Assembly (NCBI GenBank): GCA_034509425.1
Contig: JAVTVJ010000981.1
Location: 124,001-188,000, forward strand
Direction of reading: 5' to 3'
DNA: 64,000 nucleotides
Source of the DNA: Eopsaltria australis
Lineage: Eukaryota > Chordata > Aves > Passeriformes > Petroicidae
The translations under genes were made by a program, and so were the position numbers. The notes below the pieces were generated by a model. The model did no database searches and had not been told where the DNA came from. It saw nothing but the letters and a program-made list of their open reading frames with translations. Position 1 is the first letter of the stretch; every line of letters starts with the position of its first letter. Positions 3,001-25,920 of this stretch are shown piece by piece.

Positions 3001-6000
3001 ATTTTATTGGATTACTTTTTGGCTCTCTCCCCATTACCTTTGTCTGCACTCCCAGCACATTCTTATTAACAACACGGATACCAGATTGTGAACTTCTGTA
3101 CTTTTTCAACTGCTTTCAGGAGCAAGTTGAGTTATATTTAGCAGCCATATGGCATCCCTCCTCCCCATGTTTGCTAGGGATAAGAACTGGCAACTTACGT
3201 TTTCTAAAACACCGATCTATATGTTTTCATCTCCAGTTTTAATAGATGTTAACTGTGGTTTAATTGGTAACCCTGGCATTTGCCAAACAGGAAATACAAA
3301 GGGTACCTCTAACAAAGGATGCAATCACAGAACTGTTTTTCTGCAGTCTAGGTGAAACTGTTAAGAAAGCTCCTGAGCTGTACTTCAGACAGCTGCATTC
3401 TTCTTTCATTAATACAATATGGCTACGTAACTAAATAGCCACGGGTGTATTGGCTTCCTTATGCAATCGGCAATTGTTCTGTGTATGGATGACTGAACGT
3501 AGGTTACTTGAGCAAGTCTTGAGCACATCTTAACAGGGGAGAAAGTCAAGAGTACAGTGACAACCAATTCATATCCCATAAAGAACTTCAAAGACAAGGA
3601 CGACTACCACACAGTTTTCCCATGCTCCTGGGAGCCAGGTTTACAAAGCTGAATTTTGCTACAGCCCTGCCTAATTTCACAGAAACTGCAGCCAGAGGTT
3701 AGAAAGAGATCAACAGATTTTAGAACCAATACAAGACATCTGAGAGCTGCTGTCATTCAGGACAGCTGAAAAGGCTGGCTGAACACACAACAAGGATCTG
3801 CAACAGCCTCACTCCAAGCACCACCCCACAAGTGCATCCCTCAAGGAAAAGGAGAAAGGGGGGAAAGACTGGAGGCCCCTAATAATTTGAAAGAAATGGA
3901 CTTTTTTCCTCTAGCAACAAGAGGAATCACTGCTTAAAATACTTATCTGTCAGTTAAATCATGCCCAATGGTTAACTCTTCTTTCTGGTATCTGGAGCTT
4001 TCCCAATTCCTTCTGTGCTTTTCTGGGAACCAGGGATGCAAGGAAAACCCCGAGAAAAGCTCGCACTCAGGTGGCTGCAGCCACAAACATCACCTGCCTG
4101 CAAACTGGTGTGAAGCATCCTCTCCAAGGGTGGCTGCAGGAAGACAACTAGATTCCAGGCCTTATTCCATGCCTTCATTTGTTTTGCACCTAATTCAATT
4201 CTTAAGGGGCAAACCCAGCTTCTCCCTTCTGTCCAAAGAACTGCAGAGCAGCACAGAGTGTTCCTCCAGCAGGAGAAAGGGGACAGACATGCACATTACA
4301 TGCATGCCTGAGCACACTTATGAGCTGCATGTCCAGGATGAGAAATATAAATGAACAACCGTGTTTTTTCCAGCTGGTGTGTTATGTTCACTATTCAACA
4401 AAAAATAATAAACCCTCAAAACTGTGGTTTCTCTCTCTGTGCAAAAAGCAGCTTGGAGAATCTGTTCATCCAGTGCAGCCCATCCTCTGCTTAAGCCTTG
4501 TAAAATTCATGAAGGTGAATGATAAGGCACAAATCACTGCCTGCAGTGGAACCTTCACGCTGGACAACCCACTAGAGACCCAACATGCCAGTCAACACCT
4601 TTTGCAAAGAAGTAACAATTTCTTCAGAACACTGATAATTCCCTCCCAGCTTCCTTGAGGAGGCAGCTCCCAGTGAGTAAAAAATAATTGTGAAGTCAGA
4701 ACAGCACCAGGAAGAAGGGGAAACAAATTGCTTCATACACCAGAATCTCTAGCACAGAACATTTGAGAGAGAACAAAATGTTTAAGGATGCAATCAATCA
4801 TTAAGATTTCATCCCAAAAAGAGAGCACACACATTCATTTGTTCAAAGCTTGCCTTGGTGTTAAAAAAGGTAAGCATAACCATCCCTGCATGCTTGATTA
4901 TCAAATCAGAGCTCAGTGGGAAGAACAAGTACGGGAGTCTTCCAATTAACCAACTTTTTTTTTTCCTTTTGCTTTAAACGCGGTCATTGAACACTGCTGG
5001 AGAAAGATGTCAGGAAAAGCAGATCCCTGGTCTTCTGGCAGTTTTTCCCATTCCTGAACAATTCCTCCTTCAGATGCAGAGCCACAAAGGTTCAAAGGTC
5101 CCTGCAGCCTTTGTTCTCAGTTCCAGGGTAGTTACAAACAAACTTTTGTTCCTGTTTCTTCAATGAAATAAGCTGCAGCAGTTAGCAACGACTGAACTTT
5201 ACATCTGAAGCTTGCCTTGTGCATCACACAAGAGAACTATGGAATCTCATTTACACTTCCAAAAATAAGTTATCAGAACTTTTGCTGAAATAAAAATCAA
5301 CTACTCCTTACTGATTCAACCTCCAGTGAACACATTACACCTCTGCATATTCCTAGAAGTAGGAAGGAGAGACATATTTTAGTTTACAGATTGTGCCTTA
5401 AGAATTCTTTTAAGTTTATCTGAATATTTATAGCTATTGCTCATTCATTTGTGAGTTTTACAACGACCCTACATTTTGTATTTTAGTGTAAAAGTGGTAT
5501 CATCATCGTCAATACATAAAAACACACGTACATAAGCATTAGAAATAAATCATGATACCCAAACAGCAATTTTCATTTCTATCCCAGACAGAGTGCAAGG
5601 GATAAGATGATAATCATAAGGGCAAGTTATGGAAAGCAGCTACTGAAATGTATTCATGGTCCATGAAAAGTTGATACGGAAATTGTTGATAAAATTTGTA
5701 AAGATTCCATCACATTGTATCAGTCGCTATGTAAATTTAGGGGGAAGAACAAGCAAGGTGCATTATCAAGCAAGATAACAGTATTTAAATTTTAAAAACT
5801 ACTGAAATCACCCTGTTAAAAGACTGTTCCAAGCAGGCAGGAGCTGACTCTCTGGAGATGCTTCTTGTAAAACACAAACACGAAAGGCCTGGCACAAGAC
5901 AGTTGTTATGAAATCTAATTAAGACATTCATGAATCATAACAAGAAGGAAAAGGGTAAATATCAGCAAACACTTAAAGACTCTTGCAACAATTAAAATTG

Positions 6001-18600: not shown

Positions 18601-18605
18601 CCTTA
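18601..18605 (+). repeat. Target-site duplication, left copy (CCTTA)
   Basis: CCTTA directly precedes the 5' LTR and is repeated exactly after the 3' LTR. A 5-bp duplication marks a single clean integration and is more typical of class III (ERVL-like) or class I elements than of class II elements, which usually give 6 bp. Confidence 0.9.
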
Positions 18606-19528
18606 TGTTGAAGGTTAGATCTAGTTCTTTTCCTCAGGAATTTTTCTCCCATGGGTTGCTAAGACACAAATGACTGGGTACTTAAGAGAAACAAAGCACA
18701 AGGGTAGAGCCTTTCTCCGTGGCAGGGTGGGGCAAAATTGCCCCTCACGGAAGCAGAGCCTGGTAACGCAGATTTAGAGAGACTGAAAAGCAAAGGCAGA
18801 GGGAGGTCACGCCCTCTTGCTCGGGACCCTCGGAGCTGGACGGTCAGAGCTGCTGTCTGCTGAACCCACGACCCCTGAGAAGCCAGCGCGGAGCTGCCGG
18901 TCTGTCTGCTGTGAGTCTCTGCCCTCTGCCCCATCCGGAGCCGACCTGCCTGCCACCAGCCCGCTTTTCTCCGCTACATTGTAGCGGGGTTTTTCCCTGC
19001 ACGTGGAGACCCCCTTACTGTCCCAGCTCCCTGTGTCTGGGGATCCTGCTGTGGCACCAACACCAGCTGCCCCTCCCGAGGGTCTGTGGAGCAAGGGCTC
19101 TCCTCCATCCCTCCGTGCTTCGGGCAGTTGCCATTGCCGTGTGCTACCTGAGCTCACGCCGGAGCGCCCCTGCAGCCACCGGGGAATCACCGCACCCAGA
19201 GCGCCCCTGCAGCCACCGGGGAATCACCGCACCCAGAGCGCCCCTGAAAACTGTGACTGGAACTGCACCGAAGAGAAAAAGTGCCTGAAGCCGAGCAGGC
19301 TGCCACTGAGTTTCTGGTTCTGTTTGTTGGTTAACGTTATAGTTGTTGTTATTTGTTATCCTTTGTTTTAGATAGTAGTAAAGAACTGTTATTCCTATTC
19401 CCATATCTTTGCCTGAGAGCCTCTTGATTTCAAATTTATAATAATTCGGAGGGAGAGGGGTTACAGTTTCCCATCCCAAGGGAGGCTCCTGCCTTCCTTA
19501 ACAGACACCTGTCCTTCAAACCAGGACA
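18606..19528 (+). repeat. 5' LTR
   Basis: A 923-bp direct repeat of the sequence at 24,991-25,915, with TG...CA ends. It contains a GC-rich middle with a 37-bp tandem repeat (19,162-19,246). A variant polyadenylation signal, AGTAAA, lies at 19,377-19,382, which would leave a short U5. I counted by eye about 18 substitutions and 4 single-base indels against the 3' LTR, near 2%, so the insertion is moderately young. No convincing TATA box was seen. Confidence 0.95.
19162..19246 (+). repeat. 37-bp tandem repeat inside 5' LTR
   Basis: Two full copies of a 37-bp unit beginning GAGCGCCCCTGCAGCCACCG (19,162-19,198 and 19,199-19,235) and an 11-bp start of a third. The same array is in the 3' LTR from 25,548, where the first unit has one extra C. 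The array was therefore in the parent element. Confidence 0.9.
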
Positions 19529-19533
19529 GATTT

Positions 19534-19551
19534 TGGCACCCAACGTGGGGC
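19534..19551 (+). other. Primer-binding site, Lys1,2-tRNA type
   Basis: TGGCACCCAACGTGGGGC begins 5 bp after the LTR end. It differs by one base from the 18-base site complementary to tRNA-Lys1,2 used by several retroviruses (the known site has G where this has A, another G-to-A difference). It primes minus-strand DNA synthesis. Confidence 0.85.
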
Positions 19552-19638
19552 ACGAGGGCATCGAAGGGAAGAAAAATAACAGTTCTTGAGTAACGCAGTT
19601 TTTGTGTGCTGGATATAGGAACCTCATTAGGTTGCACC

Positions 19639-21699
19639 ATGTGGTCTTACTTATTCCAGTTCGTATAGCAAGTGGTCACAGCTGTTTCTCTCCCATTTGC
19701 AGCCCCATATCTAAACATAGACCCTATAACTAAAGCTACAGTAGCTGTTATACAGTTTGTGTCATGGGTCAATAAAGTGAAGAATTCATAGATTTTCAAC
19801 TTCCTCTGGAAGACAGGCATGTAGATTCACAGCTACCACACACTAATGACATGTTTTCAGAGTTACTTTAATAATAGTACCTACTGTGAAGAAGTGACAC
19901 CAAAAGAAATGTTCTCACAACCCTTCACCCAGCTCTTTGGGCCTATCCCGCCAATCTTTGAGGGGTTCAAATCTTCTTTAGATGCTAATAATACCATACA
20001 GTAACTAGTGTTGCTGATAAGCCTGCTCTATTTAGCATTCAGAAATAAAAGGGCTCTGACTTAGATAGCCACTCTAACATCTACCCCAGACAATAAGGAT
20101 GGGGCCCCAAAACCTGACACGGCCCCAAAGACTAGAGATGCTGCCACAGAAACTGACCTGGCCCTGGAAACTAGAGATGCTGCCATAGAACCTGACATAG
20201 CCCCAGAGACTAGAGATGTAGCCACAGAACCTGACATAACCCCAGAAACTAGGGATGCTGCCACAGAACCTGACACGGCCCCAGAGACTAGGGATGTAGC
20301 CACAGAACCTGACATAGCCCCAGAAACTAAAGACACCATCCCAGAACCTGACATTGCCCCAGACACTAAGGATGTTGCTACAGAGTCTGACCCGGTCCCA
20401 CAACCCACCTCAGAAACAACCCACCCGGATTGGGTGGGAGTCCTGGTGAAAGAGATACGCGAGATGGGCCAAGTGCTGAAGGAATACACTTGCCCAGCTG
20501 GTGAGAAACCCTTCCCCTACCCCAAAGAGGGAGAGTCTAATGAGGCAGCAGAAGAACCCAGAGACACTATCACCGCTCAAGCTTCAGTCAGATCAGAGGG
20601 GCAGCCACAGCCAGTAGCAGTTGCCCCTGTGGAAAAGAGGAAAACTAAGATCAAACCAGAGCAGCCAGTGAGTAATGATGGGGAAGCAGGGCCCTCTCAA
20701 CCAGTAGGGAGGCCAAAGATTGAAATCACTACTGAGTCCCTGGGGTATGACAGTCTCCGTAATCTACAAAAAGACATTGTGCGACGAGGTCGTGAGCCTT
20801 TTACAACCTGGTTACTTCAGATCTGGGACCTTATGGGTATGGGCGTGCAACTAGATAGTATTGAGGCAAGGCAGCTGGGACCCTTGTCCCAGGACTCAGG
20901 GGTTGATCAAGTATTTAGAAGAGATAACGAGCCCCCGTCTCTCTGAGAACAGCTTTTAATAAGTGTAAGAAAGAAGTTTGTCAACAAGGAGAGAATGCAG
21001 GAGTATCATCATAGAAGACCATGGAAGACCCTTGAAGAAAAAATCCAACAGCTGAGGGAGGTGGCAATATTAGAAGTACTCTTTGAGAAGGATAGACAAC
21101 ATGATAACGACCCCGACAAAGTCAAGTGTACAGAACAAATGTTGTGGAATCTGGCAAAGCTAGGGCCCTCCCAATACACCATCTTCATTGCAACAATTAA
21201 TGCTGATGACAACCGAGAGACAGTGGGCTCCATAGCCACCAAACTCAAGAATTATGATAGTATGATCAGTAGCCCAATACAAGCTCAGGTCTCTGCTGTA
21301 GTCAAAGACCTCAGAGAAGAGATGATGAGGGAGGTGAAGGAAGAAATAAAGTTGATAAGTGCAGCACCAGTGCGAGTCACAAGCCCCAAAGTCAGAGCCC
21401 AGTGCCCCCCAGCCAGGGAGAGAGGGTACACCCCACAATCTGAGCTGTAGTTCTTCCTGTGTGATCACGGAGAAGACATGAGGAAGTGGGATAGGAAACC
21501 CACTGCTGCCCTGGCAGCACGGGTACAGCAACTCAAAGAAGGAAATACTAACCGAAACGGGGAGTCTACTAAAGTGAAGGTAGCCTCAGCCTCCCGTGAC
21601 CGAGATGCCAGATATTACAGAAAAGAAGACGATCTCTTAGATCCCCTCGAGGGGACCTCTACCATGTATGCCCAAGAAAAAAATGATAACCAGAACTAG
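19639..21699 (+). pseudogene. gag: gag, broken by seven premature stops
   Basis: This frame would encode the structural polyprotein of the particle. ATG at 19,639 (context GCACCATGTGG) opens the frame that continues into pro and pol. Premature stops are at 19,666, 19,789, 19,822 and 20,062 (TAG), 20,002 (TAA), 20,944 (TGA) and 21,448 (TAG). The TAG at 21,697 sits at the gag/pro boundary and may be the natural end. The frame shows a hydrophobic stretch near 20,005-20,040, an acidic 13-residue tandem repeat (20,116-20,388), a capsid-like helical region around 20,740-21,300, and a charged tail with an Arg/Lys-rich stretch after 21,450. I see no zinc knuckle. Longest open stretch is 20,065-20,946. 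No frameshift is present. Confidence 0.8.
20116..20388 (+). repeat. 39-bp x 7 tandem repeat coding for acidic Gag repeats
   Basis: Seven in-phase units of exactly 39 bp. Each encodes 13 residues of the pattern D-x-A-P-E-T-R-D-x-A-T-E-P, with small differences between units. Unit length is a multiple of three, so copy number can vary without breaking the frame. The composition (Asp, Glu, Pro, Thr) suggests a disordered acidic spacer. Long antisense open frames over the array are a by-product of the repeat. Confidence 0.9.
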
Positions 21700-22041
21700 A
21701 GGGGCCCTGCCTCTAGCCAAGAAGAGGCACGGGAAAACCGGGTCTTTTAGACAGTGTGGATCCGATGGCCTGGCACATCAGAACCACAAAAATATGAAAC
21801 GTTAGTTGATACTGGTGCGCAGTGTACCTTAATTCCATCAAGACATGTAGAGACAGAACCTGTTTCTATTGCCGGGGTGACAGGGGGATCACAGCAATTA
21901 ACTTTGTTAGAAGCCGAGGTGAGCCTGACCGGGAAGGAGTGGCAGAAACACCCCATTGTGACTGGTCCAGAGGCCCCATGTATTCTGGGCATAGACTTCC
22001 TCCGGAATGGCTATTACAAAAACCCAAAGGGACTCAGGTGA
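21700..22041 (+). pseudogene. pro: Retroviral aspartic protease (pro), broken
   Basis: This is the enzyme that would cleave the Gag-Pol polyprotein. The active-site motif L-V-D-T-G-A is intact, with Asp at 21,808-21,810. A glycine-rich flap-like region and an I-L-G-I-D-F block follow near 21,990, as expected for a retropepsin. Stops are at 21,748 (TAG) before the domain and 22,039 (TGA, followed by G) after it, so the core itself is open. It is in the same frame as gag, which would fit stop readthrough at 21,697 rather than frameshifting. Confidence 0.8.
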
Positions 22042-24882
22042 GCTTTCAGAATAACAACTGTAGAAGCAGAGGGCATCAGGCAACTGAACACCTTGCCTGG
22101 ACTATCAGAAAATCCAAATGTAGTGGGACTCCTGAGAGTAAAAGAGCAACAAGTGCCAATTGCCACCTCGACAGTGCACCGCCGGCAGTACCGGACGAAT
22201 CGAGACGCCGTGATCCCCATCCACAAGATGATCCGCGACCTAGAAAGCCAAGGAGTGGTCAGTAAAGCCCACTCACCCTTCAACAGCCCCATCTGGCCTG
22301 TGCACAAGTCTGACGGGGAATGGAGATTGACTGTAGACTATCGTAGCTTAAATAAAGTGACTCCACCATTGAGTGCTGCCGTGCCAGACATGCTAGAGCT
22401 CCAGTACGAGCTAGAGTCCAAAGCAGCAAAATAGTATGCCACCATTGACATCGCCAATGCGTTCTTCTCCATCCCTCTGGCAGCGGAGTGCAGGCCGCAG
22501 TTCGCCTTCACCTGGAGGGGTGTGCAATATACCTAGAATCGGTTACCCCAGGGGTGGAGGCACAGCCCCACAATCTGCCATGGACTGATCCAAGCTGCAC
22601 TGGAAAAGGGTGAGGCTCCAAAGCATCTCCAATACATCAATGACATCATTGTGTGGGGGAACACAGCAGCAGAAGTATTTGAGAAAGGAGAGAAGATCAT
22701 CATGATCCTCCTGAAAGCCAGTTTTGCCATCAAGAAAAGCAAAGTCAAAAGACCTGCTCGAAAGATCCAGTTCTTGGAAGTAAAATAGCAAGATGGACGG
22801 CGCCAGATTCCCACGAAAGTCATCAATAAGATCACTGCGATGTCTCCTCCAACTAACAAAAAAGAAACTCAAGCTTTCCTAGAAGCCATAAGTTTTTAGA
22901 AGATGCACATTCCAGAGTACAGCCAGATTGTGAGCCCTCTCTACCTAGTCACCCGCAAAAAGAACGATTTTCACTAGGGCCCTGAACAGCAACAAGCATT
23001 TGCCCAAATCAAGCAAGAGATCGCTCATGCAGTAGCGCTTGGCCCAGTAAAGACGGGACCAGAAGTGAGAAATGTGCTTTACTCTGCAGCCGGGAACAAG
23101 AGCTTGTCCTGGAGCCTTTGGCAGAAGGTGCCTAGAAAGACCCGAAGCCGACCGCTGAGATTCTAGAGCCAGAGTTCCAGAGGGTCTGAAGCCAACTACA
23201 CCCCCACAGAGAAAGAAATCTTAGCCACCTATGAAGAAGTTCAAGCCGCCTCCGAGGTAATTGGCACTGAAGCACAACTCCTCCTGGCACCTCAACTACC
23301 AGTGCTGGGGTGGATGTTCAAAAGAAAGGCTCCCTCTACCCACCACGCCACCGATGCCACATAGAGTAAGTAAATCGCACTTATCACACAGTGCGCCCGC
23401 ATTGGAAATCCGAACCGCCCTGGGATCCTAGAAATAATTACAAACTAGCCAGAAGGTGAAAGTTTTGGTCTCACTGATAAAGAAGAGCAAAAACAAGTGA
23501 CCCAGGCTGAGGAGGCTCCACCATATAATCAACTGCTAGATGAAGAAAAGTGCTACGCCCTTTTCACTGATAGTTCCTGTCGCATCATAGGGATGAACCG
23601 GAAGTGGAAAGCAGCTGTGTGGAGCCCCACACGACAAGTTGCAGAAGCCACTGAAAGAGAAGGTGAGTCGAGCCAATTTACTGAACTCAAAGCTGTTCAG
23701 CTGGCCCTGGACATTGCTGAGAGAGAGAAGTGGCCAAAGCTCTATCTCTACACTGATTCGTAGATAGTAGCCAATGCTCTATAGAGTTGGCTAGAAAAAT
23801 GGAAAAAGGCCAACTGGCAGCGTAGAAGAAAGCCAATCTAGACAGCTGATGAATAGAAAGACATTGCCACTCAGGTAGAGAAGCTACCCGTAAAAGTCCG
23901 CCATGTAGACGCCCATGTCCCTAAGAGCCAAGCTAACGAAAAACACCAGAACAACAAGCAGGTAGATCACGCCGCAAAGATTGAGGTGGCACAGATAGAT
24001 TTAGACTGGCAACACAAAGGGGAGCTGTTCCTAGCCCGATGGGCCCATGATGCCTCAGGCCACCAGGGCAGAGATGCCACCTATAAGTGGGCACGAGACC
24101 GAGGGGTAGACCTAACCATAGACAGTATCTCCCAGGTGATCCATGACTGTGAGACGTGCGCTGCGATCAAACAAGCCAAGCAGGTAAAGCCTCTATGGTA
24201 TGGTGGACGGTGGTCCAAATACAAGTATGGAGAGGCTTGGCAGATTGATTACATCACACTGCCCCAGACCCGCCAAGGCAAGCGCTACGTTCTCACAATG
24301 GTGGAAGCCACCACAGGATGGCTGGAGACCTACCCTGTGCCTCATGCCACTGCCCGGAACACCATCCTGGGCCTCGAAAAACAAGTTCTTTAGAGACATG
24401 GTACCCCCGAAAAAATTGAATCCAACAATGAGACTCACTTCAAAAATAGCCTTATAAACACCTGGGCTAGGGAACATGGCATCGAGTGGGTGTACCATAT
24501 CCCTTATCATACACCAGCAGCTGAGAAAGTTGAACAGTACAATGACCTGCTCAAAACCACCTTAAAAACACTGGGTGGGGGGACGTTCAAGAACTGAGAG
24601 ACTAATTTGGCAAAGGCCACATGGTTAGTGAACACCCGAAGTTCCTCCAGCCGGGCCGGGCCTGCCCACTCTGACCCCTTGCAAACAACAAATAGAGATA
24701 AAGTTCCAGTAGTACACGTGAGAGGTATGCTGGGAAAGACTGTTTAAGTAAACTCTGCCTCAAGTAAAGACAATCCCATCCGGGGGGTTGTCTTTGCTCA
24801 GAGACCGGGCTGCACCTGGTGGGTGATGCAAAAAGATAGAGAGACCCAATGCATACCTCAAAGAGATCTTGTTTTAAAGTGA
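22042..24882 (+). pseudogene. pol: pol: reverse transcriptase, RNase H, integrase, broken
   Basis: RT spans about 22,093-23,100. The fingers/palm region is recognisable, and the polymerase motif reads Y-I-N-D at 22,633-22,644, where the family has two adjacent Asp, so a metal-binding residue is lost. RNase H spans about 23,540-23,960, with Asp at 23,569, Glu near 23,695 and Asp near 23,755. Integrase spans about 23,990-24,882: an HHCC zinc site (His 24,046 and 24,061, Cys 24,148 and 24,157), first catalytic Asp at 24,247, Asn at 24,424 where the second Asp is expected, and Glu at 24,532, with the normal 35-residue spacing. Sixteen premature stops: TAG at 22,432, 22,534, 22,786, 22,897, 22,975, 23,164, 23,362, 23,446, 23,761, 23,782, 23,839, 23,854 and 24,391; TAA at 23,371 and 24,745; TGA at 24,595. 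TGA at 24,880 looks like the natural end. Confidence 0.9.
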
Positions 24883-24990
24883 ACTACTTATGACACTGCG
24901 CTTGTATCTGTATCTGCATGTATGTATATACCTCGAAAGTTTAAATTTGATATAAAGTGTTTGCATGAGAAAAAAATTCGGGGTGGAGAA
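24883..24990 (+). other. Untranslated 3' end of provirus with purine-rich tract
   Basis: A short AT-rich stretch with no env. It ends in GGGGTGGAGAA directly against the 3' LTR, the position of the polypurine tract that primes plus-strand synthesis. The tract is interrupted by one T. Confidence 0.65.
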
Positions 24991-25915
24991 TGTTGAAGGT
25001 TAGATCTAGTTCTTTTCCTCAGGAATTTTTCTCCCATGAGTTGCTAAGACACAAATGACTGGGTACTTAAGAGAAACAAAGCACAAGGGTAGAGCCTTTC
25101 TCCGTGGCAGGGTGGGGCAAAATTGCCCCTCACGGAAGCAGAGCCTGGTAACGCGAGATTTAGAGAGACTGAAAAGCAAGGGCAGAGGGAGGTCACGCCC
25201 TCTTGCTCGGGACCCTCGGAGCTGGACGGTCAGAGCTGCTGTCTGCTGAACCCACGGCCCCTGAGAAGCCAGCGCGGAGCTGCCGGTCTGTCTGCTGTGA
25301 GTCTCTGCCCTCTGCCCCATCCGGAGCCGACCTGCCTGCCACCAGCCCGCTTTTCTCCGCTACATTGTAGCGGGGTTTTTCCCTGCACGTAGAGACCCCT
25401 TACCGTCCCAGCTCCCTGTGTCCCGGGATCCTGCTGCAGCACCAACACCAGCTGCCCCTCCCGAGGGTCTGTGGAGCAAGGGCTCTCCTCCATCCCTCCG
25501 TGCTTCGGGCAGTCGCCATTCGCCGTGTGCTACCTGAGCTCACGCCGGAGCGCCCCCTGCAGGCACCGGGGAATCACCGCACCCAGAGCGCCCCTGCAGC
25601 CACCGGGGAATCACCGCACCCAGAGCGCCCCTGCAGGCTGTGACTGGAACTGCACCGAAGGGAAAAGGTGCCTGAAGCCGAGCAGGCTGCCACTGGGTTT
25701 CTGGTTCTGTTTGTTGGTTAACGTTATAGTTGTTGTTATTTGTTATCCTTTGTTTTAGATAGTAGTAAAGAACTGTTATTCCTATTCCCATATCTTTGCC
25801 TGAGAGCCTCTTGATTTCAAATTTATAATAATTCGAAGGGAGAGGGGTTACAGTTTCCCATCCCAAGGGAGGCTCCTGCCTTCCTTAACAGACACCTGTC
25901 CTTCAAACCAGGACA
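24991..25915 (+). repeat. 3' LTR
   Basis: A 925-bp direct repeat of the 5' LTR. It starts TGTTGAAGG and ends CCAGGACA. The variant polyadenylation signal AGTAAA is at 25,764-25,769. The internal 37-bp repeat runs from 25,548. Some differences from the 5' LTR have A here for G there (for example near 25,390) and others the reverse, so the LTRs are much less one-sided than the coding region. Confidence 0.95.
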
Positions 25916-25920
25916 CCTTA
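25916..25920 (+). repeat. Target-site duplication, right copy (CCTTA)
   Basis: An exact match to 18,601-18,605, immediately after the terminal CA of the 3' LTR. Confidence 0.9.

What the first reader, a model, noticed from the sequence alone, without database searches (positions are those of the whole stretch)
19639..24882. Endogenous retrovirus inactivated almost purely by G-to-A change at tryptophan codons
The 1,748-codon gag-pro-pol frame has no frameshift but has 25 premature stops. All 25 are one or two G-to-A steps from TGG (19 TAG, 3 TGA, 3 TAA). Plus-strand C-to-T damage would have turned CAG, CAA or CGA into stops, and many such codons remain intact. TAG outnumbers TGA 19 to 3. The middle G of TGG is always followed by G, while the third is followed by G only sometimes, and all three TGA stops are followed by G. 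That is a GG-context, strand-biased signature like APOBEC3G-type editing of minus-strand cDNA. Birds lack APOBEC3 itself, so the responsible deaminase is of interest. G-to-A editing of bird LTR elements has been reported, so the process is not new, but this copy is extreme.
Basis: partly seen in the sequence, partly recalled or inferred. Interest (0 to 1): 0.85.

Follow-up and report, generated by a model that had tools for sequence, protein, structure and literature searches.

The report
Bird retrovirus fossil killed by deaminase
One copy of a virus-like element in a bird genome was wrecked by a burst of G-to-A changes, almost certainly made by a host enzyme attacking its DNA while it was being copied; the process is already known from songbirds, and this genome carries two likely culprit genes near each other.

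Summary
The element is an env-less ERVL-type provirus (LTRs 18606-19528 and 24991-25915, 5-bp target duplication) in a bird genome. Against 20 other copies from the same genome, private differences are 194 G>A among 203 (4 C>T). 29% of G before G are changed, against 9% before A, 5% before C and 1% before T. There are 26 in-frame stops before the terminal one. 25 are TGG in 15-20 of 20 copies; the 26th, TAG at 21697, is in 20 of 20 and is read as the family's own gag/pro stop, not damage. None of 103 CAG/CAA/CGA codons became a stop. The 39 best other matches to a heavily edited piece are all 94% identical, so none carries the edits. LTRs are far less edited (14/467 G) than the interior (194/1474). 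Best explanation: cytosine deamination of minus-strand cDNA during reverse transcription. The context speaks against AID and differs from that published for human APOBEC3G. Three other copies carry 11-14 stops with the same GG signature. The genome holds AID and, within 22.5 kb, two further APOBEC-family exons with intact catalytic residues: the candidates. Zebra finch ERVL copies edited more heavily are already published.

The parts
18601..18605 (.). target-site duplication CCTTA, left
   Evidence: same five bases at 25916-25920
18606..19528 (+). 5' LTR, 923 nt, begins TG, ends CA; lightly edited
   Evidence: LTR alignment; 8 G>A of 233 settled G columns
19534..19551 (+). primer binding site, Lys-type by recall (one mismatch to the remembered Lys1,2 site)
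   Evidence: sequence just 3' of the 5' LTR; tRNA identity recalled, not tested
19639..21696 (+). gag, interrupted by some of the 25 edited Trp codons
   Evidence: frame check; bird gag-type relatives of the piece 20065-20943, some named Gag P30 by a source
20104..20391 (+). 39-nt tandem array in gag, 7.4 units
21697..21699 (+). TAG between gag and pro-pol, present in all 21 copies compared: read as the family's own gag/pro stop, not editing damage
   Evidence: TAG in 20 of 20 other copies
21751..22038 (+). piece with retroviral aspartyl protease (PF00077, E 1.8e-5)
22042..22785 (+). reverse transcriptase region, searched in pieces between stops (PF00078 on 22537-22785, E 6.8e-7; only solved matches 7kse and 7ksf, protease/RT/RNase H, E 0.007)
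23449..23760 (+). piece with RNase H (PF00075, E 2.6e-7)
23857..24390 (+). integrase piece (PF00665 and PF17921, below the curated cut-offs here; best bird relative 92% identical over the full piece)
19540..24980 (+). heavily edited interior: 194 private G>A of 1,474 settled G columns, 132 of them before G
24980..24990 (+). polypurine tract directly before the 3' LTR
   Evidence: read from the sequence
24991..25915 (+). 3' LTR, 925 nt; lightly edited
   Evidence: 6 G>A of 234 settled G columns
25916..25920 (.). target-site duplication CCTTA, right

Best explanation
The provirus is one copy of a young, multi-copy, env-less ERVL-type family in a bird genome. While its RNA was being reverse-transcribed, a host single-strand DNA cytosine deaminase changed many C to U in the minus-strand cDNA, mainly in 5'-CC. 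Plus-strand synthesis copied these as G>A, and the wrecked cDNA integrated with a normal 5-bp target duplication, dead on arrival. Shown: the copy-specific, strand-biased, context-specific G>A excess; no other scored match carrying it; its drop in the LTRs; the same signature in other copies. Inferred: that it happened in one reverse-transcription round, and that the enzyme is one of the two APOBEC-family proteins (one clearly APOBEC1-like) encoded beside AID.
For: 194 of 203 private differences are G>A, 4 are C>T. Pairwise against each of 20 copies: G>A 185-226, C>T 7-22, A>G 2-57, T>C 3-17, transversions 3-19. GG 132/456, GA 42/457, GC 17/313, GT 3/248; GG against the rest p 3e-36 (155/496 against 65/1036). 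Edits are as frequent after C (24/143) as after A (70/455), so they are not CpG decay. LTRs 14/467 against interior 194/1474 (p 8e-12), as expected if plus-strand strong-stop synthesis covers the LTR early (recalled). Non-G>A private changes are only 9 in 5,307 columns (0.17%), too few for an ageing process to have made 194 G>A. Best other matches to a heavily edited piece are all 94% (39 of 39). Three other copies have 11-14 in-frame stops (the shared one included) and 47/53, 64/79 and 65/84 of their G>A before G; in one, L027, 40 of 232 GG sites are edited in the 3' half against 7 of 263 in the 5' half (bins, summed). AID plus two more APOBEC-family exons with H-x-E and P-C-x-x-C conserved lie within 22.5 kb on one contig.
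Against: No 5'-to-3' trend across the interior of this copy (Spearman -0.02, p 0.6; uneven, p 0.001). LTR-only changes are 6 in the 5' LTR and 4 in the 3' LTR, with 2 shared, whereas the published mouse case puts them in the 3' LTR; some may be later mutations. The enzyme was not assayed and its target preference is unknown. Some G>A sites are shared with other copies more than chance gives (10 of 11 in L018, 35 against 21.6 expected in L023), so a minority of the 220 may have been inherited from the template.
Confidence: 0.93

Rival explanations
1. The changes were inherited from an already edited master copy, so this is subfamily descent rather than editing of this copy.
For: Overlap of A sites with some copies exceeds chance (L018 10 against 3.0 expected, L023 35 against 21.6, L009 22 against 12.4).
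Against: 194 G>A lie at columns where at least 90% of the other copies have G, out of 220 by a looser rule. No other match is closer than 97% in one piece or 94% in another (39 of 39 each). Overlap is near chance with some edited copies (L028 9 against 10.9, L017 24 against 21.5), and target hot spots raise overlap.
Confidence: 0.04
2. Ordinary ageing, CpG methylation decay or a strand-biased germline process after integration.
For: The 5' LTR shows 3 C>T, each before G.
Against: C>T 4 of 1,303 against G>A 194 of 1,474; edits not enriched after C; other private changes 0.17%; LTRs, which would age alike, are much less changed.
Confidence: 0.01
3. AID rather than another APOBEC-family enzyme did the editing.
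For: AID is encoded in this genome.
Against: AID's WRC target (recalled) reads GYW on the plus strand: 11 of 275 such G are edited against 183 of 1,199 others (counts, test).
Confidence: 0.04

Closest known systems
Ultra-edited zebra finch TguERVL1 and TguLTRK1 copies (Knisbacher and Levanon 2016, not held; seen as rows of Table 3 of PMC12548423)
   Same: Bird LTR element, interior 5,486 bp listed there against 5,462 here, G>A dominating mismatches (392 of 475 there).
   Different: That copy has 71.5 G>A per kb; here about 40 per kb (220 in about 5,440). Whether this family is TguERVL1 itself was not tested by sequence.
Songbird ERVL families TguERVL2_I and TguERVL2_I_Ucy (PMC6523648, passages)
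   Same: [quoted passage not shown] protease, RT, RNase H, integrase; recently active; full length 6.4 kb given there.
   Different: This element is 7.3 kb with LTRs; the env-like stretch described there was not looked for here; no direct sequence comparison made.
Mouse Mtv proviruses hypermutated by mouse APOBEC3 (PMC12548423, passages)
   Same: 36 unique stop codons, all from TGG; minus-strand specific G>A; proviruses edited to very different degrees.
   Different: Enzyme is APOBEC3, said to be specific to eutherian mammals (abstract of PMC5399452); LTR-specific edits lie in the 3' LTR there, in both LTRs here.
HIV-1 hypermutated by human APOBEC3G (PMC3909203, abstract)
   Same: GG-context G>A on the plus strand; few edits in runs of four or more G (here, abstract there).
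   Different: Human enzyme favours GGG and disfavours GGAG; here GGG is the least edited GGN class (25/152 against GGA 70/152) and GGAG is edited at 21/45.
XtERV-S of Xenopus (PMC8278194, passages)
   Same: ERV-L-related, gag and pol in one frame split by an in-frame stop.
   Different: Stop there is TGA and it has env and a Ser primer site; here TAG, no env.

Membership tests
APOBEC-type hypermutated (ultra-edited) provirus | large G>A excess over C>T relative to sister copies | tested here: met
   194 against 4 private changes; 20 of 20 pairwise comparisons show it
APOBEC-type hypermutated (ultra-edited) provirus | strong dependence on the base after G | tested here: met
   GG 29%, GA 9%, GC 5%, GT 1%
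APOBEC-type hypermutated (ultra-edited) provirus | confined to the copy, not inherited | tested here: met
   within the 39 best other matches; a minority may be inherited
APOBEC-type hypermutated (ultra-edited) provirus | editing follows time single-stranded (LTR low, interior high, gradient) | tested here: inconclusive
   LTR drop clear, no trend inside this copy; a 3'-weighted pattern in L027
APOBEC3G-like target preference | GG preferred | tested here: met
APOBEC3G-like target preference | GGG favoured, GGAG disfavoured (abstract of PMC3909203) | tested here: not met
   GGG lowest of GGN, GGAG 21/45; GGA above GGG also in L017, L023 and L027; first G of GGG runs 36/333 against first G of GG runs 200/919 over the four copies
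AID target preference (WRC, recalled) | G before Y then W edited | tested here: not met
   11/275
APOBEC-family gene in this genome (candidate enzyme) | deaminase domain with H-x-E and P-C-x-x-C, near AID | tested here: met
   two exons on contig C124; L030 best solved match APOBEC-1, E 2.2e-29; L031 best APOBEC3G, APOBEC-1 third; neighbour L029 best AID, E 1.3e-53
APOBEC-family gene in this genome (candidate enzyme) | acts on ERV cDNA with CC preference | not testable with these tools
   needs an assay
ERVL (class III) endogenous retrovirus | two LTRs with TG...CA, short target duplication, gag-pro-RT-RNase H-integrase in one frame, no env | tested here: met
   only 108 nt between the end of the frame and the 3' LTR
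ERVL (class III) endogenous retrovirus | phylogenetic placement of RT with ERVL/spuma | tested here: inconclusive
   only RT-piece solved matches are 7kse and 7ksf, weak (E 0.007; that these are of foamy virus is recalled); no tree built

The most novel reading that the evidence does not exclude
Birds restrict ERVs with a dedicated deaminase derived from the APOBEC1 side of the family that gained an APOBEC3G-like CC preference independently of mammals. The pair of APOBEC genes beside AID in this genome would include that factor, and its own signature (TCC over ACC over GCC over CCC on the minus strand) would set it apart from the human enzyme.
Probability: 0.4. Interest if true: 0.65.

Novelty: new member of a known kind. 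Interest (0 to 1): 0.45.

Why it matters
Heavy editing of songbird LTR elements is published, but APOBEC3 is held to be a eutherian gene, so the bird enzyme is open. This copy gives an unusually clean spectrum (194 private G>A against 9 other changes), the same genome holds more edited copies, and apart from AID only two genes answered the APOBEC_N search. Together these make a sharp, checkable prediction of the culprit's target preference. It also shows why stops in such elements need a sister-copy check: one of the 26 stops is common to the family.

Tried and rejected
Rejected: CpG decay, descent from an edited master, AID as editor (see rivals). Readthrough structure after TAG 21697: folds of 73 nt gave z -0.61 in a sister copy and -1.55 here, so no structural support. 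LTR dating: the pair differs at 18 of 922 sites, 11 of them G/A; the remaining 7 (0.76%) exceed the interior's 0.17%, and other copies too show LTR pairs more different than interiors, so no date is given; the interior says only 'young'; a viral-contig scan found no relatives (records near the window's genome may be left out there); no Rfam family, no tRNA in the window; no solved match for an integrase and a gag piece; ten other ORFs of the window gave no Pfam match; 5 of 5 gag relatives have no Pfam domain. Correction: one search's LTR test used 481 G; the right figure is 467 (8/233 and 6/234; 38 LTRs of 19 copies, 53 and 52 unsettled columns dropped), re-tested. The sample of sister copies is the first 20 of the 39 other matches that one search listed (1,533 first-look candidates, 40 scored), so it is chosen by likeness to this copy; L009 and L010 are one insertion seen twice.
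Full report
What is there. The window lies in a genome of 1.17 Gb; every protein relative that carries an organism name in the listings is from a bird, such as barn swallow, crane and thrush. The element runs from 18606 to 25915: a 923-nt and a 925-nt LTR beginning TG and ending CA, flanked by the duplication CCTTA, a primer site 3' of the first LTR (Lys-type by recall), one frame 19639-24882, a polypurine tract and no room for env. Pieces between stops match retroviral protease, RT, RNase H and, below the curated cut-offs, integrase. It is an ERVL-type element by architecture and by its bird relatives; no tree was made.

Stops. One search found 26 in-frame stops before the terminal one (20 TAG, 3 TGA, 3 TAA). 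In the 20 sister copies compared, 25 of these codons are TGG in 15-20 of 20; TAG 21697 is TAG in 20 of 20. It lies between gag and the protease piece, so it is read here as the family's own gag/pro stop, passed by readthrough as in gammaretroviruses (recalled) and as proposed for XtERV-S; the songbird ERVL2 consensus is also described as two long ORFs in one frame. RNA folding gave no added support. The protein-level check agrees: 24 of 26 stops face Trp in bird relatives. Of the 20 sister copies 5 show no other stop in this register (frameshifts in them were not examined).

Spectrum. Pairwise against each of 20 copies, differences are 185-226 G>A, 7-22 C>T, 2-57 A>G, 3-17 T>C and 3-19 transversions over 5,323-5,438 aligned bases. 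Where at least 90% of 15 or more other copies agree (5,307 columns; 121 unsettled columns and those with fewer copies left out), this copy has 194 G>A, 4 C>T, 2 T>C and 3 others. Rates by next base: G 132/456, A 42/457, C 17/313, T 3/248. Within GGN: GGA 57/136, GGT 29/80, GGC 25/94, GGG 21/146. Of the private edits inside the frame, taken singly, 101 are missense, 63 silent and 25 make a stop.

Private, and probably one burst. The best 39 other matches to piece 20740-21340 are all 94% identical, those to 22000-22600 are 96-97%, while the ten closest pairs of sister copies differ at only 10-21 of about 5,430 sites. So nothing else in the scored matches carries these edits. Only 9 of 5,307 columns have another private change, which fits a young insertion and a single mutational event. 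Against this, overlap of A sites with some copies is above chance, by shared hot spots or by inheritance of a minority.

Where on the element. LTRs: 8/233 and 6/234 settled G columns changed, 11 of the 14 followed by G, two sites being common to both LTRs; interior 194/1474 (p 8e-12). The drop at the LTR is what editing of minus-strand cDNA predicts, since the LTR part is copied into double strand first (recalled). Inside, editing is uneven (p 0.001) but without trend. LTR-only changes occur on both sides (6 in the 5', 4 in the 3'), unlike the mouse case, where the LTR mismatches are 3'-specific G>A with one exception.

Not alone. Using columns where 60% of the others agree, G>A counts per copy run 220 (this copy), 84 (L023), 79 (L017), 53 (L027), 53 and 50 (L010 and L009, one insertion), 51 (L028) and 0-25 in the other 14. 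L027, L017 and L023 have 14, 14 and 11 in-frame stops, the shared one included. In L027 edits gather in the 3' half (40/232 GG sites against 7/263). The process therefore struck this family several times.

Fine context. Over this copy, L027, L023 and L017 together, the first G of GG runs is edited at 200/919, the first of GGG runs at 36/333 and the second of GGG runs at 55/330 (first of GGG against first of GG p 6e-6, against second of GGG p 0.03). Human APOBEC3G is reported to favour GGG (abstract). The comparison is between two kinds of analysis, so it shows a difference in signature, not in enzyme family.

The enzyme. An APOBEC_N search of the genome found five exons, all on one contig: three that belong to one gene, AID by its best solved match (E 1.3e-53), and one each of two further deaminases about 9 and 21 kb away. 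The exon in L030 scores highest with Pfam APOBEC4_like and APOBEC1, and its best solved relative is APOBEC-1; the exon in L031 is more divergent, scoring with SNAD4, APOBEC4_like, NAD1 and APOBEC1, with APOBEC3G as best solved match. The catalytic H-x-E and P-C-x-x-C residues are invariant in all three. An APOBEC1 homologue is on record for zebra finch, and lizard APOBEC1 mutates DNA and inhibits LINE retrotransposition (PMC3880073, passages). AID is disfavoured by context. Naming one of the other two is inference; further APOBEC families were not searched, the genes were read only as exons, and expression is unknown.

What is known. Sources seen here state that birds, above all oscine passerines, show the strongest LTR-element editing among 123 vertebrates (PMC6497032, passage) and that zebra finch ERVL1 has a copy with 392 G>A among 475 mismatches (PMC12548423, passage); the primary paper is not held. 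So neither the process nor its extent is new. In the listings of searches and the passages read, I saw no named bird enzyme shown to do this and no bird GGN ranking; these searches cover open-licence papers only and most listed papers were not opened.

Verdict. The finding is right in observation and interpretation, with one stop re-assigned, the 'extreme' claim trimmed, and the enzyme question narrowed to two neighbouring genes.

Noticed in passing
G000 contig C124, 709844-732295 (L029-L033): AID and two further APOBEC-family deaminase exons with intact catalytic residues lie within 22.5 kb.
   Followed up: partly
window 21697-21699: TAG between gag and pro present in all 21 copies compared: apparently a natural gag/pro stop in an ERVL-type element.
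   Followed up: partly
window 20104-20391: 39-nt tandem array in gag (7.4 units).
   Followed up: no
window 19162-19246 and 25548-25638: 37-nt tandem repeat inside both LTRs.
   Followed up: no
G000 contig C5025, L018 and L019: Two proviruses 6,350 nt apart that share one LTR (coordinates): a tandem pair. L011 also has polypurine-tract-like sequence before its first LTR.
   Followed up: partly
L009 and L010: Same insertion on two contigs (both flanks 98-99% identical): haplotype copies or a duplication; L014 and L020 share one flank exactly over 534 nt.
   Followed up: partly
LTRs of the window and of L009-L028: LTR pairs within a copy often differ more than interiors differ between copies; CpG decay, gene conversion or assembly error not separated.
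   Followed up: partly
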